Of a stretch of DNA of 64,000 nt, positions 1 through 47,189 are shown in pieces. The notes under the pieces are model-generated. The model was not told the DNA's origin. It searched no databases and was given only the letters and a program-made list of their open reading frames with translations. How positions within the stretch are numbered: position 1 is the stretch's first letter; every line of letters starts with the position of its first letter. Origin of the DNA: Petasospora fabianii (Eukaryota > Ascomycota > Saccharomycetes > Phaffomycetales > Wickerhamomycetaceae); the NCBI GenBank assembly GCA_022641835.1, contig CP048716.1, positions 1,612,001 through 1,676,000 on the forward strand, given 5' to 3'. The position numbers and the translations under genes were made by a program.

Positions 1-436
1 GGTTTGAATCCAAAGCATTGTTAACTCTTGGAAGTTCTGGTAATTGAATCCGGTTCTGATTTGAATCTTGAGCTGGGTCGTGCGTGTGTTGGTTGTACGA
101 TTCCATCTGATTGTACTGTGCGTTGGCAGCGGCTGCCTGAAGTAACAGAGCCTCTGTAGATCCCTCCTGGATGTGAGTCATCATGTCTGCTTTGGAAGCA
201 ATGTTTGGATACACATTTGATGATGACATTCCGCTTTCGGACTGATCTGATGGAAGGGAAATTTTCGTAGAACCCTTCTTTCTTCCTGAACCAACCTTGC
301 GTCCATCAGCTAGGGTTTTACTGACTGAACCTTTCTTTCTTCCTGATCCCGGCTTACGGCCCTCGGAAAGGGTCTTGCCCTTACCAGGTTTCCTTCCACT
401 TCCAGGTTTACGACCTTGAGCCAGTGTCTTTGCCAT
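1..436 (-). CDS. DAT1: DAT1, oligo(dA).oligo(dT)-binding protein datin, N-terminal part
   Basis: Open frame from the ATG at 436 down to the window edge (145 codons), so the C-terminal end is missing. The start, MAKTLAQGRKPGSGRKPGKG, matches what I recall of S. cerevisiae datin almost residue for residue. Datin is a nuclear protein that binds the minor groove of runs of 10 or more A:T pairs through GRKPG pentads. Here the first 60 residues form three tandem units, each starting T-L-x-x-G-R-K and holding two pentads: GRKPG/GRKPG, GRKPG/GRKKG and GRKVG/GRKKG. The remaining visible part is polar and rich in Q, N and S with no recognised domain. Residue 5, a conserved Leu, is encoded by CTG. The gene is divergent from DSK2, and the shared upstream region carries long T runs of the kind datin binds. 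Confidence 0.93.
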   Translation of the reverse strand, partial: MAKTLAQGRKPGSGRKPGKGKTLSEGRKPGSGRKKGSVSKTLADGRKVGSGRKKGSTKISLPSDQSESGMSSSNVYPNIASKADMMTHIQEGSTEALLLQAAAANAQYNQMESYNQHTHDPAQDSNQNRIQLPELPRVNNALDSN

Positions 437-14801: not shown

Positions 14802-15817
14802 ATATACTTGAAAGTAGTGGTAGTTAGACCTGCATGATAACTTTTTCTGTGCGCGACGCCAAGCTGCTGAGTCGGCCTATATCAAAGGCTGATCTTAAAA
14901 ATGTTGCAGGGAGCAGAAGTCCGGGGGCTCTAAAAATGGTGATGAACGGCAAAAGCAGCCCGAGCACCATTCTATATGATGTTTACGCCTGATGAACTTT
15001 AGATGGCTAACACGTTTTTACTGTATGTTACAGCTTGGACGAAGATGTGAATCTACATGAGCCTTACCGAGAACTAAGACTCCTTCAGCCGCAGTAGTGT
15101 ACTCGGAGAAGATCGGAGAATTGACTCCACACCCGCACACCTTTGCCTTGATACATACGTACACCAAGTCGACTCTTCCACGATTTCAACAGCTCTTGAA
15201 GATAACGAAGTTGGTTTTATCACATTATAGATATAAAAGTGAAGTCTTAAAATTCACACAATACAGATAGTATAAGATTTAAGTTGTTTAATTAGATTGA
15301 GTTGAATTTCTCTTAAAATTGATCAGTTTGGCGATAAGAACTTTAATAATTCTATTTTCAAATGCAGTCAAGTTTCCGACAATTTAATAACTATTTAAAA
15401 TCCTATCAAAACACTCAGGTCTTGAGGCAAAAATACAATGATAAACCTCAGCTTTTAAAGCTTCATATATACTACCTGTATTACCGGTTAATGATGATTG
15501 TTATAGTACGCTGTCCCTAACGTCTGTAGTTGATCCCGCGTGATACTTCCGCTGATTCGTGAGCATACCAGGCGTGTCAATTGCAGAATTCCAGCTGTGC
15601 TTGAATATTCTACAATTATGGGAGCTATGATATTTAGCTACAATCAATAAGGGGCCATACTCCTTTCTTGCCTTAGATATATCACATGCTGAGTGGCCCC
15701 CGAGGTGCGCCATGCATCATGTCGGGGATCGCGGCTAAAATCACAGTCCAGATATCTGTAATTGTCAGCAGACAACTTGGAACCCTACCCCATTCAATTG
15801 AGGTTTTAAACGCCAGT
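14802..15817. promoter_or_regulatory. ATR1-serine dehydratase divergent intergenic region
   Basis: 1 kb shared upstream region. Its middle (about 15225-15500) is markedly AT-rich compared with the flanks, with many short A and T runs and no coding capacity. The frame of the dehydratase stays open back to an ATG at 15686, so part of this region could be coding. Confidence 0.5.
14868..15127. promoter_or_regulatory. possible Gcn4-type sites upstream of ATR1
   Basis: TGAGTC at 14868-14873 and TGACTC at 15122-15127 match the core of the Gcn4 site TGASTCA, lacking the last A. S. cerevisiae ATR1 is a known Gcn4 target, which makes these six-base matches worth recording, but both could be chance. 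Confidence 0.3.
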
Positions 15818-16849
15818 ATGAGTACTAGACTATCGCGTTCAGGTCTCCATATCCACTCGCCGCTAGTGCATTCTTCGCCACTATCGGCTATTGCTCCATG
15901 CAAGATTTACCTCAAAGAGGACTTCTGCCAACCTTCTGGTTCTTTCAAACTTCGTGGTATTTCCCACTTTATTAAGGCCAGTGCTGATAGAATTGGATCT
16001 GATCCAACTACAAAGGGCAAGAAAGTTGTCTTTTGCGCTGCATCGGGTGGCAATGCTGGTAATGCCTTATCGTATGCTGCTACGCAGTATGGATTTGAAA
16101 GTATCGTTGTGATCCCGCTAAGCACATCTGAGCATATGGCAAAAAAGCTGAGGGAAAACGGTTCGAAGGTCATCGTTCACGGTATCAATTTTGGTGAGGC
16201 TGATGCGTACTTAAAGGAGGTTGTCATCCCTGGGCTAGGAGATGATTGTGTCGCTGTGTACTGTCATCCATATGATCATGAGGATGTGTGGAAAGGTAAT
16301 TCTTCATTGATCGATGAGGTTGTTAAGGATTTGCAGGAGGTTGGTGAGTTAGACAAACTCAAAGGGATTGTGTGCTCTGTCGGTGGCGGTGGATTGTACA
16401 ATGGTGTCGTAATGGGTCTACAGAGACATGGGCTCTTTGATGTCGGTGTGTTGAGTGTTGAAACTGAAACTTGTCCTACTTTCCAGGCTGCCATTGATGC
16501 TGGAGAGCCTGTTGCGTTGAAGAGTACAAGTACCATCGCCGGATCACTTGCAGCCACTACGATCTCAAGCAAGTCTCTGGAGAATTATCATACTCACAAG
16601 TGTAAAAACATTCTCATCTCTGACGCGGATACCGCATCTGCATGCTTAGAGTTTGTCAGGGATCATAGTGTGGTTGTGGAACCAGCTTGTGGTGCATCTC
16701 TTGCTACCGTTTACAAAGGGTTACTAAAGGAGCATGAAAATTTCTTTGGTGGGTTGAAGGAAGACGATATTGTGATTGTTGTTGCATGTGGAGGGTACAC
16801 TGTTACATTGGAGGCTTTGTTAAAGTACAAGGAAACGTACCATCTTTGA
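15818..16849 (+). CDS. CHA1: CHA1-type catabolic L-serine/threonine dehydratase
   Basis: 343 residues from the ATG at 15818. This pyridoxal-phosphate enzyme deaminates L-serine and L-threonine to pyruvate and 2-oxobutyrate. The PLP lysine is in PSGSFKLRG, the cofactor-binding loops are ASGGNAGNALSYAA and SVGGGGLYNG, and the ends EPACGASL and VACGG are as in S. cerevisiae CHA1. No regulatory ACT domain is present, which fits a catabolic enzyme. The start was chosen because HIHSPLVHSSPLS follows it at the usual distance. An in-frame ATG at 15686 would add 44 residues with no matching family segment. Orthology to CHA1 itself against a paralog is not settled. Confidence 0.82.
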   Translation: MSTRLSRSGLHIHSPLVHSSPLSAIAPCKIYLKEDFCQPSGSFKLRGISHFIKASADRIGSDPTTKGKKVVFCAASGGNAGNALSYAATQYGFESIVVIPLSTSEHMAKKLRENGSKVIVHGINFGEADAYLKEVVIPGLGDDCVAVYCHPYDHEDVWKGNSSLIDEVVKDLQEVGELDKLKGIVCSVGGGGLYNGVVMGLQRHGLFDVGVLSVETETCPTFQAAIDAGEPVALKSTSTIAGSLAATTISSKSLENYHTHKCKNILISDADTASACLEFVRDHSVVVEPACGASLATVYKGLLKEHENFFGGLKEDDIVIVVACGGYTVTLEALLKYKETYHL

Positions 16850-18993
16850 TGTTGTAAAACATGGAAAATAGCACATACTACATGAAGATGACGATGATGG
16901 TCATAGATTTGAGTTACTATGAATAATCATGTTGTTCCACCGGGGTCCTCCGTCATGTAAATGACGTACTTCATGTATAATGGCCCCACAACTACGACGC
17001 AACGTCTCACTAGACCTGGAAACTGAAATCAGTAGTGGGCTGATGTGTCAATTTTTTCTCCGTGCTGTTACTACAGACGCTTATTCTTTACAATGCCCAT
17101 TAAATAGATAATGAGATAGGGAAGAACACCTGGAACTAGTGGGGCCGGGATTAGAATATGTAGTTTCATCATGTTATAATCGGCCGCAGGCGCTGCCCAA
17201 TGTGGGTATCGAGAGCACAGCGGGTAAACGTGCATTTATGGGAGGCGCGCCTGGATGGGTATCTTGAGGACGAGGTGCTGTGGGGACAGCCGCTCTTTGT
17301 TCTGCTGCCATCGGAGAAAATGTACGTCAGGAGAGCGGAAATTGATCGTATCGGGCCTGAAAACTCTGGATATATGTGGGCATAGGTGAGGGAAGTGGTG
17401 AATAAATTAGGTGGGCAGTGGTGCAAAGCTAGGGCCGGGGGAAGGGCGCAGGCAGCTGAGAGCGAGCTCGCACAAAGGCGGCATTGATCGATTGAGGCAG
17501 GTTGGTGAAGGTGCTGGTTGGGTGCAACCCCCCACTGGTGGCTACTAGGGACAGGGATGGAATTGCAGCAGCTTGGTGCAGTGACAGCGGTGGATGGCGG
17601 ATGGATAGACGCTGCTCGAGGGGCTAAATTTGGTGGGTGATGTCCGCGCTGTTGTTGGGGCGAATGTGCGCCCGAGTGCTTCACTGGCAGCTGTCAAGGT
17701 AGATGCGGGCGAAGCCGAGAGACCAGAGACGAATGGGGAGGCCGGATCTGGGAAAGGCTGCAAAGGAAGGGACCGCGAGGTTGCCAGGGTGGACGTGGAA
17801 CGCTGTGGAAGGACCAGACAGTCATACGGTAATCTTGTTCTTATTTTGTACCATTTCCATCGTATCGTCCCATGGATCCATCTTCTTCATTTCGCATTGG
17901 ACAGTAGATGGGCCAATGAGGAGGGCCAAGCAGTAGAGCCATTCTGGGCCCACCTCCAACAAAAGACCTCTACGGGCGTCAGGGGCCCCCCAAGGTATAC
18001 ATACAATTAGCTCATAAGTTCCAATTTAGTCACTCGGTTTCAGCTTCCCCAGATATCATAAGTCCGCTGGTAATCCATAAACAAAACTCTTGGCCACCCC
18101 ACTTTTTTCTTTTTTAGCTCTGCGCTGTGCACCGTTTGCGAAGGTTGCCAACTTCCGAGCGTGAACTGCGGCAGGTGGTGCATCCCGTACTGTCTGTGCC
18201 GTAAGACGATGCTTCTCGGCGAGTGAGACTCAACAGACCTTCCCCTGTCGACATATAGAATCAGTTTAGGTGAGCATAGCTGAGACGAATGATAGAATGG
18301 TTTAAACAACACTGCACATTAGATTCACCATGATGATTGTTTCTCCGCGTTTTAGCAGTCCACAGCCTCCCACAGTCTCGCAACAGAAATACGCAGTAGT
18401 CGTCGGCGCTGGATCTTGGAAAACTGACTTATCTAGGCGGGAAGTGACGTACTGGTGCGTGGCCCAACCATCCCCTGCCTGAGGCTGCCTAATGCTGCCT
18501 AGCTCTGCCTAGAGCTTACGCAGACCGCGCACCGGCCCGGCTCATCCTGGCCCCGATCCCAGACAGATAGAAACCCGCGACTGCGAGAGAAAAGACAAAA
18601 TCATCAAGTCTGAAAAACCCCAAAGAATCCCCGGTGCCGTCTTCTACTGTTCGCCTCGCTCCTATTTCCTCCTTTCTACAGTTCGCTGCCATCCCGTCAC
18701 ACTAAAGGGAAACATCACACTAAACTACACTACACTACACTACACTACACTACACTACACTAGAGGTACATATTCGGCTGTCTTTGCTCCACTTCCAACC
18801 GTCGTTAAGCGCCTTCGTCCGCCAGTTCCGCACTGCCCATTGCTGGAACAACCTCTACGGGAAACACACTACCCGCTACGTGACACCAGCAAAGAGATTT
18901 GATACGCTCGTCTAGAACAAATCCAAACGTCCAGAACACTTAGTACCAGACAGGGTGTTCCTCTTGCCGCCGCCTCCCATCCTCACAGTTCAC
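16850..18993. other. 2.1 kb upstream of the cyclic-nucleotide/F-box gene
   Basis: No supported gene. It holds a 61-codon ATG frame at 17200-17385 without recognisable features, a GC-rich stretch at about 17220-17800, an inverted repeat GTCAT-n4-ATGAC at 16952-16965 next to a CRE-like TGACGTAC, and a pentamer repeat at 18725. Such length suggests a complex promoter or a long leader for the downstream gene. Confidence 0.5.
18725..18762. repeat. pentanucleotide repeat (CTACA)
   Basis: About 7.6 perfect copies of CTACA, ending some 230 bases before the downstream start codon and probably in its leader or promoter. Confidence 0.9.
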
Positions 18994-21900
18994 ATGAGAT
19001 CAGCGAACCGCCGTCCCAGACCTCAGCGTCCCTCACCGCTGGCAGCTCACGCCTCGTCACCAGGCGGCACACGCAACGCCTACGGTTCTGCACTTGCACA
19101 TCAGTCACGAGAATCGTCACCGCTCGCCTCTGGAGCCACCGTACGGAAGATCTCAGACGCTCAGACACCAGCACAACAAATAACCGAGGATACAACTTCA
19201 GCTACCCATATGAGCAACGATCACGACTCAGATAAGCCGACCACCACCATCACCTCCACCGAACAGAAGGACCAACCCTCACTGCGACAGAGTTCCATAA
19301 AGTCCGGCAATGGCGAATATGAACACGGTTTATCGACACGGCGGAGTTCCGACCAAAAGCAATACGAGGGCCTGAGCATCAGTATCGAGGGCGAGAACAA
19401 GAAGCAAGAGAAGGAAGAAGATGATGGTGACGAGGAAGAAGAAGAAGAAGAAGAAGAAGAAAGTGAAGAAGGCGAATACCCAAAGTCCTATCAGATGCCA
19501 CCGCAGCTCCTCGAGAAACTGAGTCGATTCCCACTGTTCAAGAATGCACCACCGTCGTTTCACAAGGCTATCGCATCCAGATTGCAACTCATGACGGTTC
19601 ATGCTCAAGAGTACATCGTCAAATTTGGAGAGCCCGCCAAAGCTATGTATTGGATTCTCAGAGGTTCTGTCGCTGTCACTTCCCCAGATGGTGAAGCTGT
19701 CCACGCCGAATTAGTTGCTGGTCAATTCTTTGGCGAGATTGGTATCCTCTTCAACAGACCAAGAACAGCCACGGTTATTGCCAGAACAAAAGTATTGCTC
19801 GGTGTGTTGACTGCTGACTCTTTCAATGCTGTACTGCCTGATTTCCCAGCAGTTGAGAGAATGATACGTGATGAAGCACAGGAGAGACTATCGATGCAAG
19901 ATAAGAGAAAGAGAAACGGTGTCACTAACATCTTGTCAAACGCAGCTAATAATACCCCAACAATCATGGATAAGACCGATCTCGATATGAGGGCATCAGA
20001 AGTTGCCACTGCTGCTTCAAATTTACCGGGGCCTTCTGTCCCACCAAAAGTCAGATCTCCATCACCGGCACTCCTACCAGACGTGCTTGGTTCTTTTGCA
20101 TCAGGATTACACAAAGATGTTCAGTTCACCACTAGGGAGAGTCTCCCACAGATCCATGATAATGTCGATCACTCCATCCCTACCAGAGACTTCCTCAGAT
20201 CCATGCCAATGTTTACACTGCTCCCATCTGCTATCATTCATGAACTTGTCCTTGGTGTCGAACCTAGACGTTTTGAACCGTTTGAATACATCGTTAAGAA
20301 AGGGGAACTAGGAAGAGACATTTTCTTTGTTGTTAATGGTGAGGTTGAAGTCTTGGATCCAAAGAGGATCTCGCTGGCCACATCTGAAGGTGATAAGGAT
20401 AAGAAAGTGGATAGAGTGCTTGGAAGATTGGGTCCTGGACAGTACTTTGGTGAAATGGCCTTCTTGGAGTCGTTATCTGATGGAAAGGAGAAGATTGAGA
20501 GAAGTGCCGATATAAGATCTGTCTCTACTGTTGATGTGCTGATCGTTACTGGTGATCAGTTGGAAAACCTGTATTCGAGATACCCAAGAATCTGTGATGA
20601 GATGAGAGAAACTGCCACCAAGAGAATCAACAAGAACAAAGACCACACTGAGGCTCCTGATCAGCACGAACATCAGGAAACTCCTTTCGGTAAGTGGAAG
20701 GGCTTCCAGACTTCTGTTGCGCAGCTTAATGATCCTGTGTTCAGTCCGACTGCCACCACCAACAATGCATCTCGAAATGATATCTCCATCCGTCCACCGA
20801 GAGAAGGATCTCCAACATCTACTATCTCAGAGTCCACGCTGATGACCGGTAACGGACCGTCTACATTCAACTCTTTCTCCACCGTCAATTCCTTTCACTT
20901 CGATGACCAAAAGCATCCACAGCTCAAGCGCAGACGCTCCACAGTGTCAGCGAACCGTTCACAGTTGGCCCCACCGGACCCACTCGATACCACTCAACCT
21001 CCGCTGACTATGCATCTCCCACCAATGAACCCAGTTGTCCCTTCGGTCTCATCCTTTCCATCTGCTCAACGTCAACCACCCCCATTTCAGTACATGCCGC
21101 ACGCTAAGCGTCTCCGTCTCGCCTCTATCTCGGGCCGGCGTCGTTCTTCTGTCCTTAGTACCGGTGTTCTCCCAGACCGTATCTTGCTCCGCGTGTTCTC
21201 ATTCCTCTCCCTCCCCGAACTGATGAAACTGCGAATTATCTGCCGCAGATGGAGGCAGCTTCTTTATGTTGCACCAGGATTCTTTGAGCACTTGGACTTG
21301 AGACCATATAACACATCAATTGATGACAAGGCTCTCATTCAGATCACTGACTTTGTTGGAAGCAGACCAAAGACCATCAACATGTCTAACTGCTTTCACG
21401 TCACCGATGTTGGCTTCTGTTATATGGTTAATGAGATTGGCATCAGTGGCTCCATCACAGTTATTAAGATGAGTTCTGTCTGGGAAGTGAGTGCCATGGC
21501 TATTATGGATCTTGCTGTGCCAAGTGTTGGTAGGTTCATTGAGGAGTTAGATTTGTCCAACTGTGGCAAGACGAGAGATGATGTCATTGAGAGAATCATT
21601 GGTTGGAAGAAGAGGCATAACAGTGGTGGTTCCAGTATGCTTAACGCCGCGAACAACGGCCAGGCATACTTGGACAGTCCTGTTCCTGGTATGGAGGAGT
21701 TTGATGGTATTGTGTCCAATGAGTCTGCTGTTGGCTGTCCAAACTTGAAGAGATTGAACTTGGGCTACTGCAAGCATCTTACTGACCGTTCGATGTATCA
21801 TATTGCCCTTCATGCAAATGACCGTTTGGAATCACTCGATATCACAAGATGCACCACTATCACCGATGCTGGATTTGCTTATTGGGCTTATCAACCCTTC

Positions 21901-22365
21901 CCAAATCTAAAGAAGCTTAAGATGAGTGACTGTACATTCCTTACTGACAAGTCTTTGATTGCCATTGCCAGTTCTGCCCAGTTCCTGGAAGACTTGGACC
22001 TCTCATTCTGTTGCGCTTTGACTGATGTCTCCATTGAAGTGATCTGTCTTGGCTGCCCAAACTTGACCCATCTGGATCTTTCCTTCTGTGGTTCGGCAAT
22101 CTCTGACTCCACACTTTTGGCCATCTCCATCCATTTACGAAACTTGAAGTCTCTTGTTGTGAAGGGCTGTGTGAGAGTTACAAGAGCAGGTGCTGACGCT
22201 TTGCTTTCCAACTCTGTATCCCTGAGATACTTGGACATCTCGCAGTGTCGTAATGCTCACTTCTACAGGGATAACAGCCCGGCCATGGCTATTGCTCCAA
22301 CGCCAAATTCGAGGTCAGCATTTGTTACAACTGCTCACGGCAACGTTGTCGAGATTGTTATTTAA
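18994..22365 (+). CDS. double cyclic-nucleotide-binding, F-box and LRR protein
   Basis: 1123 residues from the ATG at 18994. After a polar N-terminus and an acidic run (about 137-162) come two cyclic-nucleotide-binding (CNB) domains. CNB1 (about 165-300) has the phosphate-binding cassette FGEIGILFNRPRTATV. CNB2 (about 398-535) has FGEMAFLESLSDGKEK then ERSADIRS. Both keep the Glu and an Arg used to bind cyclic nucleotides. A Ser/Thr-rich linker leads to an F-box (about 725-770, LPDRILLRVFSFLSLPELM) and Grr1/AMN1-type leucine-rich repeats (about 790-1090, units such as LDLSFCCALTDVS). The layout suggests an SCF ubiquitin-ligase substrate receptor gated by a cyclic nucleotide. S. cerevisiae has no protein of this layout that I know of; I recall similar ones in other fungi. 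The real ligand and targets are unknown. Confidence 0.88.
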   Translation: MRSANRRPRPQRPSPLAAHASSPGGTRNAYGSALAHQSRESSPLASGATVRKISDAQTPAQQITEDTTSATHMSNDHDSDKPTTTITSTEQKDQPSLRQSSIKSGNGEYEHGLSTRRSSDQKQYEGLSISIEGENKKQEKEEDDGDEEEEEEEEEESEEGEYPKSYQMPPQLLEKLSRFPLFKNAPPSFHKAIASRLQLMTVHAQEYIVKFGEPAKAMYWILRGSVAVTSPDGEAVHAELVAGQFFGEIGILFNRPRTATVIARTKVLLGVLTADSFNAVLPDFPAVERMIRDEAQERLSMQDKRKRNGVTNILSNAANNTPTIMDKTDLDMRASEVATAASNLPGPSVPPKVRSPSPALLPDVLGSFASGLHKDVQFTTRESLPQIHDNVDHSIPTRDFLRSMPMFTLLPSAIIHELVLGVEPRRFEPFEYIVKKGELGRDIFFVVNGEVEVLDPKRISLATSEGDKDKKVDRVLGRLGPGQYFGEMAFLESLSDGKEKIERSADIRSVSTVDVLIVTGDQLENLYSRYPRICDEMRETATKRINKNKDHTEAPDQHEHQETPFGKWKGFQTSVAQLNDPVFSPTATTNNASRNDISIRPPREGSPTSTISESTLMTGNGPSTFNSFSTVNSFHFDDQKHPQLKRRRSTVSANRSQLAPPDPLDTTQPPLTMHLPPMNPVVPSVSSFPSAQRQPPPFQYMPHAKRLRLASISGRRRSSVLSTGVLPDRILLRVFSFLSLPELMKLRIICRRWRQLLYVAPGFFEHLDLRPYNTSIDDKALIQITDFVGSRPKTINMSNCFHVTDVGFCYMVNEIGISGSITVIKMSSVWEVSAMAIMDLAVPSVGRFIEELDLSNCGKTRDDVIERIIGWKKRHNSGGSSMLNAANNGQAYLDSPVPGMEEFDGIVSNESAVGCPNLKRLNLGYCKHLTDRSMYHIALHANDRLESLDITRCTTITDAGFAYWAYQPFPNLKKLKMSDCTFLTDKSLIAIASSAQFLEDLDLSFCCALTDVSIEVICLGCPNLTHLDLSFCGSAISDSTLLAISIHLRNLKSLVVKGCVRVTRAGADALLSNSVSLRYLDISQCRNAHFYRDNSPAMAIAPTPNSRSAFVTTAHGNVVEIVI
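19435..19461 (+). repeat. GAA trinucleotide repeat
   Basis: About nine GAA units encode the poly-Glu part of the acidic run in the cyclic-nucleotide/F-box protein. Confidence 0.85.
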
Positions 22366-22594: not shown

Positions 22595-23696
22595 TTAATA
22601 GACAGAAATGTAGTTGTTGATACGCTCCTTCTGGTTCTGTGCGATACACTCAGCAATCCAAGTGATGTTTCTCACTTCCTGCTCCTTAGACTTAATCCAA
22701 GCCCAGATAGTTGAAACAGTAAACTGTTGGGTGAATGCGTCCCTACACAGCTCCATTTCAAGCTTGTAGAAGTGGTCTTCAAGGGTCTTACCACCAACGT
22801 TGTCAAAGAAGGACTTGTACTCGTAAACGTTCTCAACGACACCTCTAATCTGCTCAATGTCATCAGCCTTGGCCAAGGAGTCAGTGAAAGCGTAAAGCTT
22901 TCCAAAGTTTGGAATCAGCGTCTTTCTCTCCTCTGGAGACAAATCAGAACCGAAAGAGTTCAAAGAAATGTTGATAGCACGTCTGTCAGCTTCAAATTCA
23001 AGGAGAGTTTTCATAATTGTGGATGCTGGCTCTGGCTGCTTGAGGCAGAACTGGTAGAAGTCCTCGAGGTATGCCTTGTAAAGCTTGTTTCTGATAATCT
23101 CAATGTTCAAGTCGTCCAAATCTTCAGCTGTCAGGCAGTCCTTGAAGTATGGGGCCAACGGAGTATCAACCAAGACAGTCTGATACAAGGAGTCAATGTC
23201 TGTAGCAACTGACAAGGTAGGAAGTGTCTCGAACCATCCCAATGGGTGACATCTATCCAAGATCTCAGCCTTATCCCTATCGTGGACCGTACCTGTGATC
23301 ATCAAGGCGACGTTGTCAATCATGTAGCCATAGGTGATATAGTCCATGAACTGGGCCATTGGCTGAACAGCCTGGTCACGTATGTACTGAAACTCAGCAT
23401 AAAGTTTTTCTGAGGCTTTGGCCTGGATAATAGACGTGGCCAACGGGGATGGGACATTGGAGAGGAAGTTGCCGTAGTCAGTGGAAGAGAGCTGGAGCTT
23501 GAGGTCCTCCAATGTCTCACACTGTGTGAGGTTGATGTACTGGTTAGATGTGAGAAGGCCGTTTCTGTATCCACGGACAACACCTTCAATGTACCCGCTG
23601 AAAAAGGTTCAGTTAGTTATCGTGAAGATTAGCGGCAATAGAGAACGGTAGGGATTGTTGAACTTACTTATCGATGTTGAAGAAGACGCCCTCCAT
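22595..23696 (-). CDS. VMA6: VMA6, V-ATPase Vo subunit d (two exons)
   Basis: Exons 23668-23696 and 22595-23597 give 343 residues, against 345 in S. cerevisiae. Subunit d sits on the proteolipid ring and couples the V1 stalk to it, acidifying the vacuole. The sequence is near-identical to the yeast protein over long stretches: MEGVFFNIDNGYIEGVV, YITYGYMIDNVALMITG, CHPLGWFETLPTLSVATD, NKLYKAYLEDFY, and the end NITWIAECIAQNQ. The Leu of LCRDAF is encoded by CTG, which supports a standard code. The first ten residues come from the short first exon. It is divergent from COG8, and convergent with the F-box gene 229 bases away. Confidence 0.98.
23598..23667 (-). other. VMA6 intron
   Basis: 70-base phase-2 intron on the minus strand with 5' site GTAAGT, branch AACTAAC (23612-23618) and CAG at the 3' end. 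Splicing joins AA to C to give Asn in NIDNGYIEG, matching the conserved protein exactly. Confidence 0.95.
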
Positions 23697-24051: not shown

Positions 24052-25812
24052 ATGACGGAAGTACAAGATAGTGCTAGCACTACGCTGGACATATCAGCTC
24101 TCAATGTCTTGCTCCAAGAACTCGTTGGGGACCTGCCCACACAGGTTTCCCAGTTACTCGACAACGAACTCCTCCACAATGAAATCCTCCATTACCTTCA
24201 TGATCTCAGCTCAATTGGATCGAAAGACTACCTTTCATCTGTTCCCCCAACACCTGGTATGGATATTCAAGAAGAGAGAACACTTGTTCAGGACATTGCC
24301 GAACTCGAAGCAGCACAACGATCCATAGACACACAACTCAAGTCCGTTATCGTCCAATCGCAGCAGGTGATTATCGACAATAAGAAGGAGTTGGCCCATG
24401 CGGAATCACTTTTCAAGTCTGACTTTAACTCAAACCTGAGGGCGCTCTTGAAAACTTTCACCGAAGATGACCTCGAGGAGATGAGTGATGCACTGGATCC
24501 TGACTTGCAGGAACTGGAAGCCGACCTTGAACCTAGTGACAAGGACAGAACATTCAAGGCCATTGTCGCACGAGTCAAAGATATGATAGCACAAGACTCT
24601 GGTGAGAAGGAGAACAATCATCTGTCTGTTGTTCTTGAAAACATGGAACAGATTCTCAGCATTCTTGAGCTTCCATCACTCACAGGCGCATGCATCAAGG
24701 CAGGGTACTATTCTGAAGCACTTGAGATCAGTTCTTACACTCGAAGACTTGCCATTCGTTTCCCAAAAAGCGACCTCGTCAAGGAAGTGGAGATGGGTAT
24801 CAAGTCCGAAATGTCTCACATGTTAATAGGTCTTATAAGACTATTGAGAACAAATTTGAAGCAGTCCTCGGTCATCAAGATTGTGTCTTACCTCAGAAGA
24901 ATCCAGCCATTCAGCCAAGCCAAAGATGCAGATGAGCAGCTGAAGAGAATATTACTACATGCTCGTTTCCAGTTCATCAAATACGAGTTGGAGTCTTTGA
25001 CACCGTTGAAGGATAGTGAGTTACACGAAAAATTCTTGAAGAGAAGCATTGAAGTCATAAGAGAACACTGTTTCGGATCAATCATGGCTTTCAAAAACGT
25101 TTTTCCAGATGTAAATGAGAGTGAAATGGGCCCTGTTGTAATTGAGATTGAGGAAGAGAAGTATCAGAGGAAAGTAGGGACTACACCTGAGGAACCCGCT
25201 ACAGCCACACCTGACAAGAAACCGTCAGTGGGTGAGACAATCAGCTTTGAAGAGAGCAAAAACTTGACAAATAACGAAGATTCTGAGGATACACACCCCT
25301 CGGACAAGGAAGAGGGTGAAAACCATGTTACAGCGGATGGTATCACTACGAAAGCAGAAACAGAAGAGGCTTCAGAGGCTCCTGAAAAAGAAGAGAGCCC
25401 TCAAACAGCTGCCTCCACAACAGAGCCAAAAACCAGTTCAAACAACTCTGATGAACCACCAACAGAGCATAAGCAACCGACAATTCAGCTTATTAGACCT
25501 GCTGAGGAGAGAGGCTTGTCAAACGTTGTACTGTTTGAATTTGTGAGACACATCTTGTTGGAGTTTACAGAGTCTATCACCGCTTCTCTCCCACTCATTG
25601 CCGAAACCTCCGTACGGGACGGCCTCTATCTTCAACTCATCTACTGTTCTCAATCCCTTGCAAGAATTGACCAGAACTTCAGCGATCTGATGACTTCCGT
25701 GTTGCTCAACGCGAAGCATCAGGGTGACAAGTTGCTCATTGCGCGCGACGCTTGGTGTGTTGCTGTGGAGAGGCAGAAGGCATTGGCGAAGAACTTGCTG
25801 AACAGAAATTGA
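24052..25812 (+). CDS. COG8: COG8 (DOR1), conserved oligomeric Golgi complex subunit
   Basis: 586 residues from the ATG at 24052. COG8 is a lobe B subunit of the COG tether, which captures retrograde vesicles at the Golgi. The Dor1-family core spans about residues 65-350 with coiled-coil helices (ELEAAQRSIDTQLKSVIVQS) and the family hallmark ILELPSLTGACIKAGYYSEALE near residue 203. A low-complexity acidic insert (about 370-470, rich in E, T and S) precedes a conserved C-terminal helical part (FEFVRHILLEFTESI). Its position between VMA6 and TCB3 matches the ancestral order (YML071C next to YML072C). Confidence 0.92.
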   Translation: MTEVQDSASTTLDISALNVLLQELVGDLPTQVSQLLDNELLHNEILHYLHDLSSIGSKDYLSSVPPTPGMDIQEERTLVQDIAELEAAQRSIDTQLKSVIVQSQQVIIDNKKELAHAESLFKSDFNSNLRALLKTFTEDDLEEMSDALDPDLQELEADLEPSDKDRTFKAIVARVKDMIAQDSGEKENNHLSVVLENMEQILSILELPSLTGACIKAGYYSEALEISSYTRRLAIRFPKSDLVKEVEMGIKSEMSHMLIGLIRLLRTNLKQSSVIKIVSYLRRIQPFSQAKDADEQLKRILLHARFQFIKYELESLTPLKDSELHEKFLKRSIEVIREHCFGSIMAFKNVFPDVNESEMGPVVIEIEEEKYQRKVGTTPEEPATATPDKKPSVGETISFEESKNLTNNEDSEDTHPSDKEEGENHVTADGITTKAETEEASEAPEKEESPQTAASTTEPKTSSNNSDEPPTEHKQPTIQLIRPAEERGLSNVVLFEFVRHILLEFTESITASLPLIAETSVRDGLYLQLIYCSQSLARIDQNFSDLMTSVLLNAKHQGDKLLIARDAWCVAVERQKALAKNLLNRN

Positions 25813-40061: not shown

Positions 40062-43000
40062 CTCTGTGGTCGATGTAAGAGTGTGGGGTTGATTCGGGTT
40101 CCCACTTGTCGTGATGGGTATTTCTCGTCGTTTTATAACTGTGCATATCAAACTAGAGTGTGACATAAAATGGACGTTATTAAAATATTTTGATAGCAGG
40201 GTTTTGGATACTGACCCGACTGGCGTGAGAAGGCTCAGTTGGTGATATGCCATGAAAGCTCTAGTAATGTCATGATGGCCGATACTTGATATCCTTGGGC
40301 TACGTGCTAGCTCCCTGTGATATGTAATAGGGACTGGTGTACTGACTACCGCTAGGTACTAGACTAAACAGAGATGCCTGCTTGTTTCGAAGATGTCGAT
40401 GGTGAATGAAATAGTTATACCTATGATAATGATCACGTCAACTTTTTTGGAGGAGATGGCGTCCAATGTTCTCTTAACAGAGATATAGTATTGGTACACA
40501 CACAACACATCTGGGAATTTGAGACATGCGAGACATAGTGCTAAATCTGCCGTGCTTCAAACGCGAGTGAGAGATCTGAGGCTATCCTTCCGCGCAGGTG
40601 GAATGTGGCGGTGTGTACGATGGGCCGGGAGAAGAGCAGCTACATGGACCAAAGGAACGGGGGATACTATAAAAAGGTTCAACATTCCACTTACCGATGC
40701 TGAGCGAACTGCAGGCCACCTCCACACCCTCTCACGGGAACCTACAAGTGGTCGCTGGCTCGGGCGTTCCTGGTTCCTGTGGATCTGCAGAGTGCATGAA
40801 TCGCCGTATGGATGCTATGACATTTTTTATGCCAGGGGCACGCGTTACAGCAGCATCGTAGCCAGCAGCCGGTACTGTAACTGGCGGGCTAGGGCGATAG
40901 GGGGCTGATTGATGGTGTGGTGATATGGACGATTTGACTAATTAGACATATATAGTTGTTATTGCTGTTATTTGATGGAACTGTGGTGCTGGGTGGTTGT
41001 ATATGCCTCTCTGCAAACTCTTGTCCAGCGGCGCTTGGTGAGAAGGTGGCTGGAGCGGCGACTCAATGACATTGTGTCGGCCGCAACAAAAAATATATGT
41101 ATCATCAGCTGCTGCAGACGCTCAAAAAGCACCAGTTCTGCCCACAACCAACCACCATAACGATGGGTCGCCTGCTCAGGACGAATGCTTAGCCAGATTT
41201 CCAAAAGCAGGGCCTAACAAGAGGCGTACTTACGCAGGCAAGATACCCGCGGTGTCGAGAAGGTTCCCCGCATGGTTGTTGAACACCTGTTTGAAGAAAA
41301 AAAAAAACAGTTGCGATGAAATTACCCAACGACTCGCAAGAGCAGAAAGGTAATATCTAGAAAGAACAAATGCCATGTATTGTACTGGTTGCCAATGCAC
41401 AGATTCAAAAGGTGATTAGTGAGAAAAAGGTCAACTGAAGTACAGATTTATCAGACGTCAGCTTTGATCAAGCTACAGCAGCAGACTACCTGCATATTTT
41501 CATTCTTCGGCATGGTCTTTTTGAAGAAGTGATGACGAGGCGGGCATCTTATTACTTGTCCTTGATATGACGTAGAACAGGGTTCGGCAATCTGACTGTA
41601 TGCGGGTCTTTGGAACTGGAACCTGCTCATCTGAAGTCACACCAAAACAAGCAAATATATAGCACAGTGTAGTCATTGGTCGCTGTGAAAGGCTACCGAT
41701 GCCCGTTGTAGATACCAGAGCGAGTAAATAGTCTAAGTAAGCCTTGCTACGTTCCTGCTCGAAGAGTGACAACTGTGCGCTTTCGTTGCTCCAGTGGGGT
41801 TATTACATCGCCTCTACATGTACTATAACCTCATAGCGTAGTAGATCAGACAATAGGGACTAGAGTTGAACAACATTCACCCTCCTTGATAAATTTTTTG
41901 ACTGAAAGGCACCCAGCAATCTAAAATTTCATCGTATCACACCCTTTTGCTTCCCACCAGAAACCCCACAGCCTCAACCTCTCCCAAAGTCCAGGCTGCT
42001 TGCGTTCCTGTGCAATCCAGGAACAGGCGTAGACTGCAGCCAGATGCGCAGCGCAACTCCCGGGACACAACTTTCCAGTACAGTATAGAACTGTTGCGAA
42101 AAAGATGGTAGTTGGCAGGGATATATTTAGGAATGCTGTTGATGCAACTGATAGATCCACCTATTATGGGCCCGGTAGTGGCACCCATTGACAATGTCGA
42201 ACTGTTTAGGTGTTGTAAGACCGGAGATGCCCTGGCATCCCGCATTGTCGGCAGCTGCTTCACCCACCATAGATTCCAAACAATGCCGGCTTCTTTCAGC
42301 TGCAAAATATCATGCCGCACTCGGGGCATCCTTTATTATCACATCTGATGTACGTAAGTTGATATCGACAGGGCCGCTTTTCTAGCCTTGTAATAGCGGT
42401 CCCGTGCATTGTGCACCGTGCGGTTGGTTGCCGCCTCCAAACTAGAGTCTAAATTAAGCGCGCCGCTATATCCTGTTGGCCCGTTGAAGACGTCGAATCT
42501 CTTGAGACGCATGCTTGCAAAGCAAGCCAAAGCAAACCAGACCGACTATATCACTTCCAGATCGTCTCACAGCACAAGGGAGCCTCGTGTCACAAAAGGC
42601 TTACTGAATGACTCGCAATCTCCGGGCCGTTTTAGGCGCATGGTAGCTACACTGGCTGTAGCCTCCTGCGACGAGCTGCGGAAATATGCGGAATCTAGTC
42701 GCGGATTCTTGCTGTCTTTGAGTGCGCGTACCGGTTTAAGGCACCGCCTCGTAGGAGCCTCCTGTCTTTCATCATCTGTTATCCATGTTCTGATCGTGTT
42801 TTAAAGATGTTCTTTTAGCATGTGTGTAGCTACCAGTATCCTCCCTCAAATGCTCAAAGTTCGAATCTGGAGGTCACTGCAAACCACAGCAAACCGGTAT
42901 CGACAGCTAAAAATGATGTCGTGCCCCGTGCGCCTATTCTGATTTCATCATGCAACTTGTTACGTCAGACGCGTTTGGGTCCTTTGCTCACCGGCCGTTA

Positions 43001-43094
43001 TAAATATCCATGATGGTCCGCCTTCTCTGAACAAAAGCCAACGCCCGCCTAGTCCACGACGTTCTAGTAAGTCTCAACATATCAACAACCCGCA
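40062..43094. other. 3 kb region with no supported gene
   Basis: The longest stretch without a gene. Frames of up to about 130 codons exist but lack ATG starts or family features. It holds an A11 run at 41297-41307, a perfect inverted repeat GTGCA-TTG-TGCAC at 42404-42416, a CRE/ATF-like TTACGTCA at 42960-42967, and a TATA box for the next gene. No tRNA B box with matching stems was found. It likely contains the extended promoter of the Con7-like gene. Confidence 0.5.
42999..43006 (+). promoter_or_regulatory. TATA box of the Con7-like gene
   Basis: TATAAATA, a full consensus TATA element, 89 bases before the start codon at 43095. Confidence 0.65.
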
Positions 43095-44816: not shown

Positions 44817-47189
44817 TTAATCAAACCATCTAAGACGGATAGGAACCCTCACCATAGCGATTTTCTGACTGTTTCTAAACTTGAACTCAGTCTGGATACA
44901 GTAGATTCTTGAAAGCAAACAGGACTGGAAATTTGGTACCAGTGTCTCTCGGATGAGATCATGGAACTCCAAATGAACCTTAACATGTCTGCTCCATGAC
45001 CCATCCTCACCCCTGCTCCAAGTTTGCGAGTTCTTTTCGCTTAGAGTAGTCTTAAAGACAGGATGAACAGAGACATCAGACTTGAGTTCCTTCATGGCTT
45101 TCACATCTTCAAAAATTGACCTGTCAATGTATCTCTCAATGTGCAACTCTCTTGCATCAAACTCAGCCTTGATCTTTGCTAACTCGGCATCGAAATCAGC
45201 AAACTCACGTCTCATCTTCTCAAATTTCTCATTATCACAGATGAAGAAGTCACTCCACATCTTGACTGGGATTGAAGAAGTGGATGAAACGTTACCGACA
45301 ACGAGCTTGCAGACGATCTGACTGATCTCAGGTGGGCTGGTCATTTTCATTGAAGCCATGTCTGATGGCAAGAAGGACAAGTCAAAGTCCAAACTGGTAA
45401 GTTTCTTCTTTTCGTCTGGCGAAAGGGAGTTGTTCATCATTTCGTAGTTGGCCAATCCAAGAGCATTGAGTTCAGAAACATCGTTTGTCTTTCTAAGAAG
45501 TGAAGGGGACACATATGGCAAACCATCCTTCGGAACATGTGTTGTGATGGTGATCCACCCGGCCTCATTGGATGTCAGTGATTTCTTCTTACCAAACAAT
45601 GACTTCGACGCCTGTGGAACGTAGAGATGCTTGATATCGACTCTGGAGATATCGGAATGGCTCTGGTTTCTAAGCGGGAAGGCAAGATCATGTCTTGTAA
45701 CATTCTCACCATGTGCCAATGTCAACTGCTGAAGCTTGATCTCGTTATCCAGCTGGGCAACAGCATCCTCGTTTCCTTCAATACTGAGCATAAGCTTTCT
45801 CTGGGCATTCTTAATACTTCCTTGCACTTGTTGTTTCAAGCGACTGATAGCCTTGTTAGAAGAGAACAACGAAACACCGAAACCGAAGGGAATGAATCTA
45901 ACAGCGTAGTCCTCATCACACATCACAGCAGGCATGGGCTGTCCTGATCTGTCTTTCAGCGTTGGGTGAAACGCGATCAAGCTGGCATTGATTGAGTAGT
46001 TGATCGTCTTGTCATTGGACATGTCCCTCGTTAATATCGGAGATCCACGACGACCCGAGTGACCATACCCAAGGGCATCATTGATCTGTATCTGTGAGTA
46101 TTTACCATTCTTAAAGTAGCGGTTGACTCCAAGCGATGGTGGGAGGAGTGTGTGAAGTTCCTGTCCGTGACGACAGGTGTTATCGAGCAGTTTGTATGGG
46201 ACTTTGAACGTGAAGAACTTCTTGTACTTTGTCTGTGGAGCTAGCGCTCTGTTAGGAGGTAGTCCAAGGTAGCAATCGTCCCAGTCTTTGTCGCCGTATT
46301 TGTACTGGACGTTGCAGGAAGGGGAGATACATCCGAATGACCATGAAGCGTTGAGATCAATCATATGAAGGAAGCGACGGTTGTATAGTTTCTTGGATTC
46401 AGAATCGACAATAGAGACATGTCCTTGTAGTGTAACGTAAAACATGTGGAATGGAATCTCTCGATCTGTAGCATTTTCAATGACGACGTAACCATGGATG
46501 AGATCTCCAGATGTGTATTCTTTCAACATTGATTCCATCTCTTGTTTCTGGCCAATTCGAGGAGCTGACTTTGTCACATTCACTTGGACTGTGAGCTTCG
46601 GAGATACGGCCATTCGTGGAAGCTTATGAACGTTTGTTGGGTCATCTAGACCAATTGATTCACTTGGAATATCTTGGTCACTGATGCTTGAGTAATCAGT
46701 AGAAGCTGTTGCAATTGATGATCGGTGTGAGCTCAGGGTAGCTGCAAGGGACGCTGGCTCTGAGGCATCGGCATCCGTAGAAGAAGTTTGGTCATTGCTT
46801 GTAGAAGAAGTAGCGAGCCTGGCGATGGAAGGAGTGGCCTCCTGAGAGTATTCTGGCGGCTCCTCTGTGGATTGACCTCTGAAATAGCTCGAATCATGGA
46901 CTGCTCTGTGCATCTCGAAGGAAGGCAGCACGTCAAAGTAGACCTCATCGTTCCCATCACCAAAGTCTCTATATTCAGCGTCATCAACAAATCCCGTGTG
47001 CCAGTCTAAAGAGTCCTTGGGCACATTGGCCCTGCGGAGGATCTCTTGTGATACTTGTCGACGTCGGTCCTCTCGAAGGAAAGCAGCAGTGTAGTCAATG
47101 TGGTCGTAGTCTTCAGGATGGGTGTTCTCTTCTGCATTTTCCTGGGGTGTTAACCCGGCTTGCATAGGCACCCTCTTCTCTTCAGTCAT
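44817..47189 (-). CDS. BUL1: BUL1/BUL2-type Rsp5 ubiquitin-ligase adaptor
   Basis: 790 residues. Bul proteins are arrestin-like adaptors that bring the ligase Rsp5 to permeases such as Gap1, driving their ubiquitination and endocytosis. A PPxY motif (PPEY, residues 111-114), the Rsp5 WW-domain ligand, lies in the N-terminal region. The Bul N-terminal arrestin-like domain follows at about 195-480 (SGDLIHGYVVIENATDREIPF, HMIDLNASWSFGC, FTFKVPYKLLDNTCRHG), then the Bul C-terminal domain up to the final RIYCIQTEFKFRNSQ. It is shorter than S. cerevisiae Bul1 (about 976). In S. cerevisiae BUL1 is the neighbour of DSK2; here it is some 42 kb away, so a rearrangement separates them. Confidence 0.9.
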   Translation of the reverse strand: MTEEKRVPMQAGLTPQENAEENTHPEDYDHIDYTAAFLREDRRRQVSQEILRRANVPKDSLDWHTGFVDDAEYRDFGDGNDEVYFDVLPSFEMHRAVHDSSYFRGQSTEEPPEYSQEATPSIARLATSSTSNDQTSSTDADASEPASLAATLSSHRSSIATASTDYSSISDQDIPSESIGLDDPTNVHKLPRMAVSPKLTVQVNVTKSAPRIGQKQEMESMLKEYTSGDLIHGYVVIENATDREIPFHMFYVTLQGHVSIVDSESKKLYNRRFLHMIDLNASWSFGCISPSCNVQYKYGDKDWDDCYLGLPPNRALAPQTKYKKFFTFKVPYKLLDNTCRHGQELHTLLPPSLGVNRYFKNGKYSQIQINDALGYGHSGRRGSPILTRDMSNDKTINYSINASLIAFHPTLKDRSGQPMPAVMCDEDYAVRFIPFGFGVSLFSSNKAISRLKQQVQGSIKNAQRKLMLSIEGNEDAVAQLDNEIKLQQLTLAHGENVTRHDLAFPLRNQSHSDISRVDIKHLYVPQASKSLFGKKKSLTSNEAGWITITTHVPKDGLPYVSPSLLRKTNDVSELNALGLANYEMMNNSLSPDEKKKLTSLDFDLSFLPSDMASMKMTSPPEISQIVCKLVVGNVSSTSSIPVKMWSDFFICDNEKFEKMRREFADFDAELAKIKAEFDARELHIERYIDRSIFEDVKAMKELKSDVSVHPVFKTTLSEKNSQTWSRGEDGSWSRHVKVHLEFHDLIRETLVPNFQSCLLSRIYCIQTEFKFRNSQKIAMVRVPIRLRWFD

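What the first reader, a model, noticed from the sequence alone, without database searches (positions are those of the whole stretch)
18994..22365. Two cyclic-nucleotide-binding domains fused to an F-box and leucine-rich repeats
One 1123-residue protein places two CNB domains before an F-box/LRR body like that of SCF substrate receptors. Both phosphate-binding cassettes keep the Glu (FGEIG and FGEMA) and an Arg (PRTATV; ERSAD), so ligand binding looks intact. The layout suggests ubiquitin ligase activity gated directly by cAMP, cGMP or another nucleotide, bypassing PKA. S. cerevisiae has no such protein to my knowledge; similar fusions occur in other fungi but I know of no described mechanism. 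The 2.1 kb upstream region hints at complex control.
Basis: partly seen in the sequence, partly recalled or inferred. Interest (0 to 1): 0.78.

Follow-up and report, generated by a model that had tools for sequence, protein, structure and literature searches.

The report
Fungal F-box protein with nucleotide sensors
This yeast-like fungal gene encodes a protein that joins two cyclic-nucleotide sensor domains to a ubiquitin-ligase targeting module; the combination was catalogued in fungi and animals in 2007, but what it binds and what it targets appear to be still undescribed.

Summary
One intronless 1123-residue ORF (18994-22365 +) carries two cyclic-nucleotide-binding (CNB) domains, an F-box most like Skp2's (17 of 31 identical), and about 11 leucine-rich repeats like FBXL2 and FBXL17. 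The architecture is not new: Kannan et al. 2007 (PMC2246266, Table 1) list it as CNB family 8, 'LR_CC', of metazoans and fungi: usually tandem CNBs with a C-terminal F-box and leucine-rich domain, cassette GEIGVLLDPPRTATVRA. This protein's first cassette is GEIGILFNRPRTATVIA. It is a new member of a known kind. My searches found no paper giving the family a ligand, substrate or mechanism. Best reading: an SCF substrate receptor whose activity or location responds to cyclic nucleotide, probably cAMP. 'Both pockets intact' is too strong: CNB1 has a near-canonical cassette but lacks the coupling glycine (Gly169 to Ala); CNB2 keeps that glycine but its cassette is seven residues longer. Three RRx[S/T] sites, two between CNB2 and the F-box, suggest PKA may act on it rather than be bypassed. 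The upstream region gave no firm sign of complex control. Pocket modelling failed, and no fungal collection was available, so pockets, orthology and conservation remain untested.

The parts
18994..22365 (+). whole ORF, 1123 aa: tandem CNB + F-box + LRR protein (LR_CC kind)
18994..19512 (+). low-complexity N-terminus, residues 1-173, with an acidic run (residues 141-161); no Pfam domain found
19513..19899 (+). CNB1, about residues 174-302; residues 176-298 align without gaps to the SthK CNBD, 47 of 123 identical
19609..19650 (+). CNB1 beta2-beta3 stretch (residues 206-219): Gly169 equivalent is Ala215, Asp170 equivalent is Lys216
   Evidence: meaning from PMC2246266
19729..19776 (+). CNB1 phosphate-binding cassette FGEIGILFNRPRTATV (residues 246-261; Glu248, Arg257, Thr258)
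19900..20181 (+). about 94-residue linker between the CNB domains, no Pfam domain found
20182..20643 (+). CNB2, about residues 397-550
20284..20328 (+). CNB2 beta2-beta3 stretch (residues 431-445): coupling glycine kept (Gly440), Arg441 at the Asp170 position
20446..20514 (+). CNB2 cassette FGEMAFLESLSDGKEKIERSADI (residues 485-507; Glu487, Arg503), 7 residues longer than SthK's
20644..21135 (+). linker between CNB2 and F-box, residues 551-714
19333..19353 (+). RRx[S/T] site STRRSSD (residues 114-120)
20926..20946 (+). RRx[S/T] site KRRRSTV (residues 645-651)
21106..21153 (+). KRLRLASISGRRRSSV (residues 705-720), just before the F-box: PKA-type site and/or bipartite-NLS-like
   Evidence: the NLS likeness is recalled, not tested
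21166..21264 (+). F-box, residues 725-757; 17 of 31 identical to Skp2
21265..22263 (+). LRR solenoid, residues 758-1090; 11 strand-helix units in the model
21589..21732 (+). low-confidence insert inside the LRR solenoid (residues 866-913)
16850..18993 (.). upstream intergenic gap; no Rfam family at gathering score; 499-nt ATG-free stretch before the start codon

Best explanation
The protein is an F-box substrate receptor of an SCF ubiquitin ligase with a built-in tandem cyclic-nucleotide sensor, a fungal member of the LR_CC kind. The F-box binds Skp1 and so Cul1 (inferred from homology). The LRR solenoid holds the substrate (inferred from FBXL2, FBXL17 and Skp2). The N-terminal CNB pair binds a cyclic nucleotide, most likely cAMP, with CNB1 as the main binding site and CNB2 a modified or modulatory one. 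Binding rearranges the CNB pair and, through the long linker, changes access to substrate or Skp1, or the protein's location. The RRx[S/T] sites before the F-box would let PKA act on the same protein, so that one cAMP rise gives both a direct and a kinase-borne input. Shown here: domains, cassette residues, F-box and LRR homology, LRR fold. Inferred: every binding and gating step.
For: Domains above curated cut-offs. CNB1 aligns without gaps to the SthK CNBD, whose entries 4d7s/4d7t are named as cGMP and cAMP forms. Glu and Arg are kept in both cassettes; the changes that go with nucleoside binding in trypanosome PKA-R (Ala to Glu, Arg to neutral; PMC6440977, passages) are absent: Gly250/Arg257 and Ala489/Arg503. 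F-box 17 of 31 identical to Skp2. A single-sequence AlphaFold2 model of residues 715-1123 (pTM 0.62) has Skp1-bound FBXL2 as best match (6o60_C, E 2.9e-12), then FBXL17 entries. Cassette 1 has 12 of 17 letters of the LR_CC consensus, including GEIG and PRTATV. RRx[S/T] clusters: 3 in 1123 aa against 4 in 11,476 aa. That ascomycetes make cAMP but generally not cGMP is recalled knowledge.
Against: CNB1 has Ala for Gly169 and Lys for Asp170; Kannan et al. tie Gly169 to allosteric coupling of cAMP binding. CNB2's cassette is extended by 7 residues, and even scored without the extension its best family score is 37, against 64 for CNB1. By BLOSUM score LR_CC ranks third for cassette 1 (58), behind PKG (64) and Other_eukaryotic (59). 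The trypanosome PKA-R authors state that sequence alone did not predict the altered ligand, so reading residues is a weak guide. The pockets could not be modelled (pLDDT 34.9). In the F-box/LRR model the F-box itself has pLDDT under 50, so the fold match speaks for the LRRs, and many LRR proteins without an F-box (ribonuclease inhibitor, NLR proteins) also match. No relative was found in the collections available. The M. phaseolina F-box survey, 31 proteins by adding up its section 14, names no CNB fusion (PMC7991009).
Confidence: 0.5

Rival explanations
1. The CNB pair no longer senses a ligand; it is a folded protein-protein or dimerisation module, and the protein is an ordinary F-box/LRR substrate receptor regulated by phosphorylation and abundance.
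For: CNB1 lacks the coupling glycine and CNB2's cassette is remodelled. CNBs that have lost the cassette Arg exist, e.g. PDZ-GEF, solved without a ligand (PMC2246266).
Against: Glu and Arg are kept in both cassettes, and CNB1's cassette is near-canonical; without selection for binding these would be expected to drift.
Confidence: 0.2
2. The CNB domains bind another ligand (a nucleoside, nucleotide or metabolite), making this a metabolite-gated SCF comparable to TIR1 with auxin.
For: Trypanosome PKA-R, which also pairs LRRs with two CNBs, binds nucleosides, and its authors expect unexpected ligands for orphan CNBs (PMC6440977, passages). CNB2's cassette is unusual.
Against: The specific changes that mark that switch (Ala to Glu, Arg to neutral) are absent here.
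Confidence: 0.15
3. The F-box/LRR part works outside an SCF, for instance with Skp1 only or as a scaffold, so nucleotide binding does not control ubiquitination.
For: F-box proteins with non-ligase roles are reported; a fungal one, Fbx23, is titled a transcriptional coactivator (PMC11750091; title and abstract start in the listing, one passage).
Against: The F-box is close to Skp2's (17 of 31) and the best sequence matches of the F-box/LRR part are SCF receptors; the fold matches agree but rest on the LRRs.
Confidence: 0.1
4. It is a PKA regulatory subunit derivative that still inhibits the PKA catalytic subunit.
For: Tandem CNBs and an RRSS site N-terminal to CNB1.
Against: The cassettes are 239 residues apart with a linker of about 94 residues, the site is followed by Asp, and Pfam found no docking family at E up to 0.001.
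Confidence: 0.03

Closest known systems
LR_CC family (CNB family 8 of Kannan et al. 2007, Genome Biol 8:R264, PMC2246266)
   Same: Tandem CNBs, C-terminal F-box, C-terminal leucine-rich domain, found in fungi, cassette with GEIG...PRTATV (12 of 17 letters in cassette 1).
   Different: Second cassette extended by 7 residues; CNB1 lacks Gly169. Whether these are family-wide cannot be said: the paper's table prints one consensus and I could not fetch its sequences.
FBXL2 / FBXL17 / Skp2 F-box-LRR substrate receptors
   Same: F-box followed by an LRR solenoid; best sequence matches and best fold matches.
   Different: Those receptors have no CNB domains (recalled); here about 700 residues with two CNBs precede the F-box, and there is an insert in the LRRs.
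PKA regulatory subunit
   Same: Two CNB domains in tandem with Glu and Arg in each cassette.
   Different: Long linker between the CNBs, no docking domain found, no well-formed inhibitor site; F-box/LRR instead of a kinase partner.
Trypanosoma PKA-R (PMC6440977, passages read)
   Same: LRRs and two CNBs in one protein.
   Different: LRRs are N-terminal there, no F-box is mentioned in the passages read, and its cassettes carry the nucleoside-binding changes, absent here.
SthK and HCN channel CNB domains
   Same: The SthK CNBD is CNB1's best single-domain match among solved structures (47 of 123); the top row by E-value is a Toxoplasma protein with several CNBs, 9ya0_MA.
   Different: No membrane channel here.
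TIR1/COI1 small-molecule-gated F-box-LRR receptors
   Same: F-box-LRR receptor controlled by a small molecule, as proposed here; TIR1/AFB is also reported to make cAMP (PMC11394779, passages).
   Different: There the hormone sits in the LRR with the substrate (recalled); here the sensor would be a separate N-terminal domain pair.

Membership tests
LR_CC (CNB family 8, PMC2246266) | CNB domains, usually in tandem | tested here: met
   Two cNMP_binding stretches; each recovered alone
LR_CC (CNB family 8, PMC2246266) | F-box and leucine-rich domain C-terminal to the CNBs | tested here: met
   F-box 725-757, LRRs 758-1090
LR_CC (CNB family 8, PMC2246266) | Cassette consensus GEIGVLLDPPRTATVRA | tested here: inconclusive
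   CNB1 12 of 17 identical, tied with PKG for most identities among the best eight printed, third by BLOSUM score of 29 consensus motifs scored (FixK left out, gapped); for CNB2 LR_CC is not among the best eight
LR_CC (CNB family 8, PMC2246266) | Groups with the family in a CNB-domain tree | not testable with these tools
   No family sequences or fungal collection available; scans found no relative
F-box substrate receptor of SCF (FBXL class) | F-box that matches Skp1-binding F-boxes in sequence | tested here: met
   Pfam; 17 of 31 identical to Skp2; the F-box was not modelled reliably
F-box substrate receptor of SCF (FBXL class) | LRR solenoid following the F-box | tested here: met
F-box substrate receptor of SCF (FBXL class) | Binds Skp1-Cul1 and ubiquitinates a substrate | not testable with these tools
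   needs biochemistry
Cyclic-nucleotide-binding CNB domain | Cassette Glu and Arg retained | tested here: met
   Glu248/Arg257 and Glu487/Arg503
Cyclic-nucleotide-binding CNB domain | Coupling glycine Gly169 in the beta2-beta3 loop | tested here: inconclusive
   CNB1 not met (Ala215), CNB2 met (Gly440)
Cyclic-nucleotide-binding CNB domain | Open pocket in a structural model | tested here: inconclusive
   Single-sequence model failed, pLDDT 34.9
PKA regulatory subunit | Docking domain and inhibitor site before closely spaced CNBs | tested here: not met
   No docking family in Pfam at E up to 0.001; cassettes 239 residues apart; the only RRx[S/T] site before CNB1 is followed by Asp

The most novel reading that the evidence does not exclude
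A ubiquitin ligase directly gated by cAMP, with split duties in its sensor: CNB1 binds the nucleotide through a near-canonical cassette but without the usual coupling glycine, while CNB2 keeps the coupling glycine with a remodelled cassette; PKA sites beside the F-box make the same receptor a coincidence detector of cAMP and PKA activity. This would be a fungal cAMP effector besides PKA.
Probability: 0.25. Interest if true: 0.75.

Novelty: new member of a known kind. Interest (0 to 1): 0.38.

Why it matters
In fungi cAMP is taught as acting mainly through PKA (recalled). A family catalogued in fungi and animals in 2007 that couples tandem cAMP-type sensors to an F-box/LRR receptor, and for which I found no biochemical follow-up in ten full-text searches of an open-access library, is a concrete and cheaply testable candidate for a second, direct cAMP output: protein destruction. 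If binding were shown it would also give a naturally switchable E3 ligase.

Tried and rejected
Relatives: scans of viral contigs with the whole protein, the CNB pair and a five-row CNB alignment and of genome contigs with the whole protein and the F-box/LRR part found no relative; these are viral and prokaryotic collections, so this says nothing on distribution in fungi. Pattern scans of viral contigs for cassettes fetched 25 loci; BLASTP of their ORFs of 80 aa or more with both CNBs gave no hit at E up to 0.1, and the matched frames of the 23 loci, judged by eye, showed no CNB domain around the match. The pattern had one codon too few; one search corrected it.

Structure: the CNB1-CNB2 prediction without relatives failed and was discarded. 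The F-box/LRR model is of middling confidence (mean pLDDT 59.7; residues 715-763, which hold the F-box, and 866-913 under 50) and was used only for the overall LRR fold.

Upstream control: no Rfam family at gathering score in 16850-18993; ARAGORN, run with the bacterial code, found 0 tRNA genes in the window. In 16850-18494 STRE and CCAAT motifs are not enriched, TGACGT/ACGTCA 3 against 0.6 in shuffles (11 of 500 reach it), fuller TGACGTMA none. One of four motif types tested after the fact is a weak hint only. The 499-nt ATG-free leader is second longest of 20 window ORFs compared, but 90 of 2000 shuffles also have none.

CDK-type S/T-P sites are not enriched (14 against 12.4). Cassette comparison does not single out LR_CC by score. 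NCBIfam's four matches (CRP and three other bacterial models) are all far below their cut-offs and were not used. Thr after the cassette Arg is often read as a cGMP sign (recalled), but SthK has the same residue and its entries are named for both nucleotides, so I did not use it. A fungal relative that came to mind from memory was not typed or used as evidence. Papers: A. nidulans and M. phaseolina F-box surveys and a Neurospora phosphoproteome were opened for CNB fusions; none mentioned one in the text I saw. Their supplements and figures were not read. Two papers and an EPAC review proved irrelevant in the passages seen.
Full report
Observation. The window holds an uninterrupted ATG-started ORF at 18994-22365 on the + strand, 1123 residues. 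Pfam finds two cNMP_binding stretches (whole-protein E 5.6e-33), an F-box-like domain at residues 725-757 (1.5e-8; F-box model 2.4e-6) and LRRs (LRR_6 5.4e-15), these above the curated cut-offs; two of the seven families listed, both LRR models, are below theirs. These are not chance: each part, searched alone against the sequences of solved structures, finds its class. CNB1 matches 158 distinct sequences at E up to 0.001 (60 shown); the top row is a Toxoplasma protein with several CNBs (9ya0_MA, 3.5e-26), the next the SthK CNBD (1.3e-18), which is the best single-domain match. CNB2 matches 93 at E up to 0.01 (60 shown), SthK best (5.5e-13). The F-box/LRR part matches 16 at E up to 0.001, FBXL2 best (1.4e-31), FBXL17 next. 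The F-box alone matches 12 at E up to 0.1, led by the Skp2 F-box (1fs1_A 3.6e-7, labelled p19; 1fqv_A 1.4e-6).

Anatomy. Residues 1-173 have no Pfam domain and an acidic run at 141-161. CNB1 spans about 174-302, a linker of about 94 residues follows, CNB2 spans about 397-550, a second linker runs to 714, then F-box and LRRs (the boundaries are mine). CNB1 aligns to the SthK CNBD over 123 residues without a gap, 47 identical. Its cassette FGEIGILFNRPRTATV keeps Glu248 and Arg257. In CNB2 the cassette FGEMAFLESLSDGKEKIERSADI keeps Glu487 and Arg503 but is 7 residues longer than those of SthK, Euglena PKA-R and CNB1.

In my five-row alignment the Gly169 position is Ala215 in CNB1 (and Asp170 is Lys216), but Gly440 in CNB2. 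So the two domains have complementary departures: CNB1 has the better cassette without the coupling glycine, CNB2 the glycine with a remodelled cassette. Whether this is peculiar to this protein or general in the family is unknown. The substitutions that accompany nucleoside binding in trypanosome PKA-R (Ala202/Ala326 to Glu; Arg209/Arg333 to neutral; PMC6440977, passages) are absent in both domains; the same paper warns that sequence alone had not predicted its ligand.

F-box and LRRs. The F-box has 17 of 31 residues identical to the Skp2 F-box as printed by the search. A single-sequence AlphaFold2 model of residues 715-1123 reached mean pLDDT 59.7 and pTM 0.62, with 11 strand-helix units; ten-residue blocks of model residues 201-370 lie at 66-89, but the stretch that holds the F-box (residues 715-763) and an insert (866-913) are under 50. 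Foldseek against the PDB gave 143 matches with E up to 0.001; the best is FBXL2 of the GGTase3-FBXL2-SKP1 complex (E 2.9e-12, TM 0.62 by query, rmsd 7.1), followed by three FBXL17 entries, TIR1, COI1 and Skp2; ribonuclease inhibitor, NLR and bacterial LRR proteins also appear among the 50 rows shown. The fold match therefore supports the LRR solenoid; the F-box rests on sequence.

Phosphorylation sites. The protein has 5 overlapping RRx[S/T] matches in 3 clusters (starting at residues 116, 646/647 and 715/716), against 0.81 matches on average in 2000 shuffles, 0.25% of which reach 5. As a control from the same genome, 20 other ORFs that I picked as likely genes from the listing (11,476 aa; other listed ORFs were left out) hold 4 clusters in all. 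Two of the three lie between CNB2 and the F-box. They could be PKA sites, which would make PKA a partner rather than something bypassed, or parts of basic nuclear-localisation-like stretches; nothing here decides between these.

Upstream region. The 2.1 kb gap holds no Rfam family at gathering score. There is a 499-nt ATG-free stretch before the start codon, second longest of 20 ORFs compared (this gene included), with 90 of 2000 shuffles also ATG-free. Of four motif types tested in 16850-18494, only TGACGT/ACGTCA exceeded most shuffles (3 against 0.6; 11 of 500 reach it) and the fuller CRE was absent. I do not regard complex control as shown.

Comparison with the known. Table 1 of Kannan et al. 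2007 lists, as family 8, 'LR_CC', NR/GOS count 148/4: 'CNB domains found in metazoans and fungi, usually occur in tandem like the PKA regulatory subunit and contain a carboxy-terminal F-box domain and leucine rich domain', cassette GEIGVLLDPPRTATVRA. That is this protein's architecture. Cassette 1 shares 12 of 17 letters with that consensus, including GEIG and PRTATV, though it shares 12 with PKG too, and PKG (64) and 'Other_eukaryotic' (59) score above LR_CC (58) by BLOSUM62 among the 29 motifs scored; FixK was left out because its motif is gapped. Cassette 2, scored without its extension, has a best score of only 37 and LR_CC is not among its best eight. I therefore file the protein as LR_CC by architecture, with the tree-based test not done.

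Function. Ten full-text searches of the open-access library listed no paper that I could recognise as dealing with the ligand, partner or substrate of such a protein. One search (F-box with 'CNB domain') returned 2 papers: Kannan et al., which I had already fetched by its DOI, and a vascular review seen in the listing only. Fungal F-box studies do not mention the fusion in the text I saw: A. nidulans (74 proteins; passages and a figure legend), M. phaseolina (31 proteins by adding up its section 14, five with LRRs; passages and section 14), Neurospora (42 predicted; passages and section 21). Their supplements and figures were not read, and most subscription papers are outside the library, so silence is weak evidence.

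Mechanism. I commit to a cyclic-nucleotide-responsive SCF substrate receptor, with CNB1 as the likely binding site, cAMP the likely ligand (ascomycetes make cAMP, generally not cGMP: recalled), CNB2 as a modified partner domain, and PKA phosphorylation before the F-box as a probable second input. I hold membership in the LR_CC kind near 0.9, an SCF role near 0.75, binding of a cyclic nucleotide by at least one domain near 0.65, and the whole gated mechanism at 0.5. These are judgements, not computed values.

Context. Neighbours are ordinary fungal genes: a PLP-dependent enzyme (15686-16849), a V-ATPase AC39-type ORF (22595-23359, -), a Dor1-like (Cog8) gene (24052-25812), and further off HMG-CoA reductase, a Bul1-like gene, a tricalbin-like gene and others. 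Window GC is 46.6% and many genes are long single ORFs. The organism is unknown; a Lipomyces-like yeast is a guess from recalled genome features only, not a result (one search is a bare taxonomy look-up).

Verdict. Real, correctly read, and worth a bench test, but a new member of a kind described in 2007 rather than a new architecture. What is added here is the residue-level qualification of both sensors, fold support for the LRR body, and the basic sites beside the F-box.

Noticed in passing
22595-23359 (-): V-ATPase AC39-type ORF begins at profile position 82 of 339, so its N-terminal part must lie in an upstream exon or be missing.
   Followed up: no
48183-49310 and 49879-51096 (+): Two adjacent EamA transporter genes, perhaps a tandem duplication; they were not compared with each other.
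   Followed up: no
1-436 (-): ORF at the window edge with tandem GRKPGSGRK-type basic repeats.
   Followed up: no
44817-47189 (-): Bul1-like gene (Bul1_N E 7.2e-105); its role as a ubiquitin-ligase adaptor is recalled. A second ubiquitin-pathway gene in the window.
   Followed up: no
40062-43094: A gap of about 3.0 kb between two likely genes, in which the listing of ORFs of 120 aa or more shows only a 130-aa ORF (41937-42329, -) and the end of another minus-strand ORF.
   Followed up: no
18720-18762: Short ACACT-type tandem repeat in the leader upstream of the gene (read).
   Followed up: no
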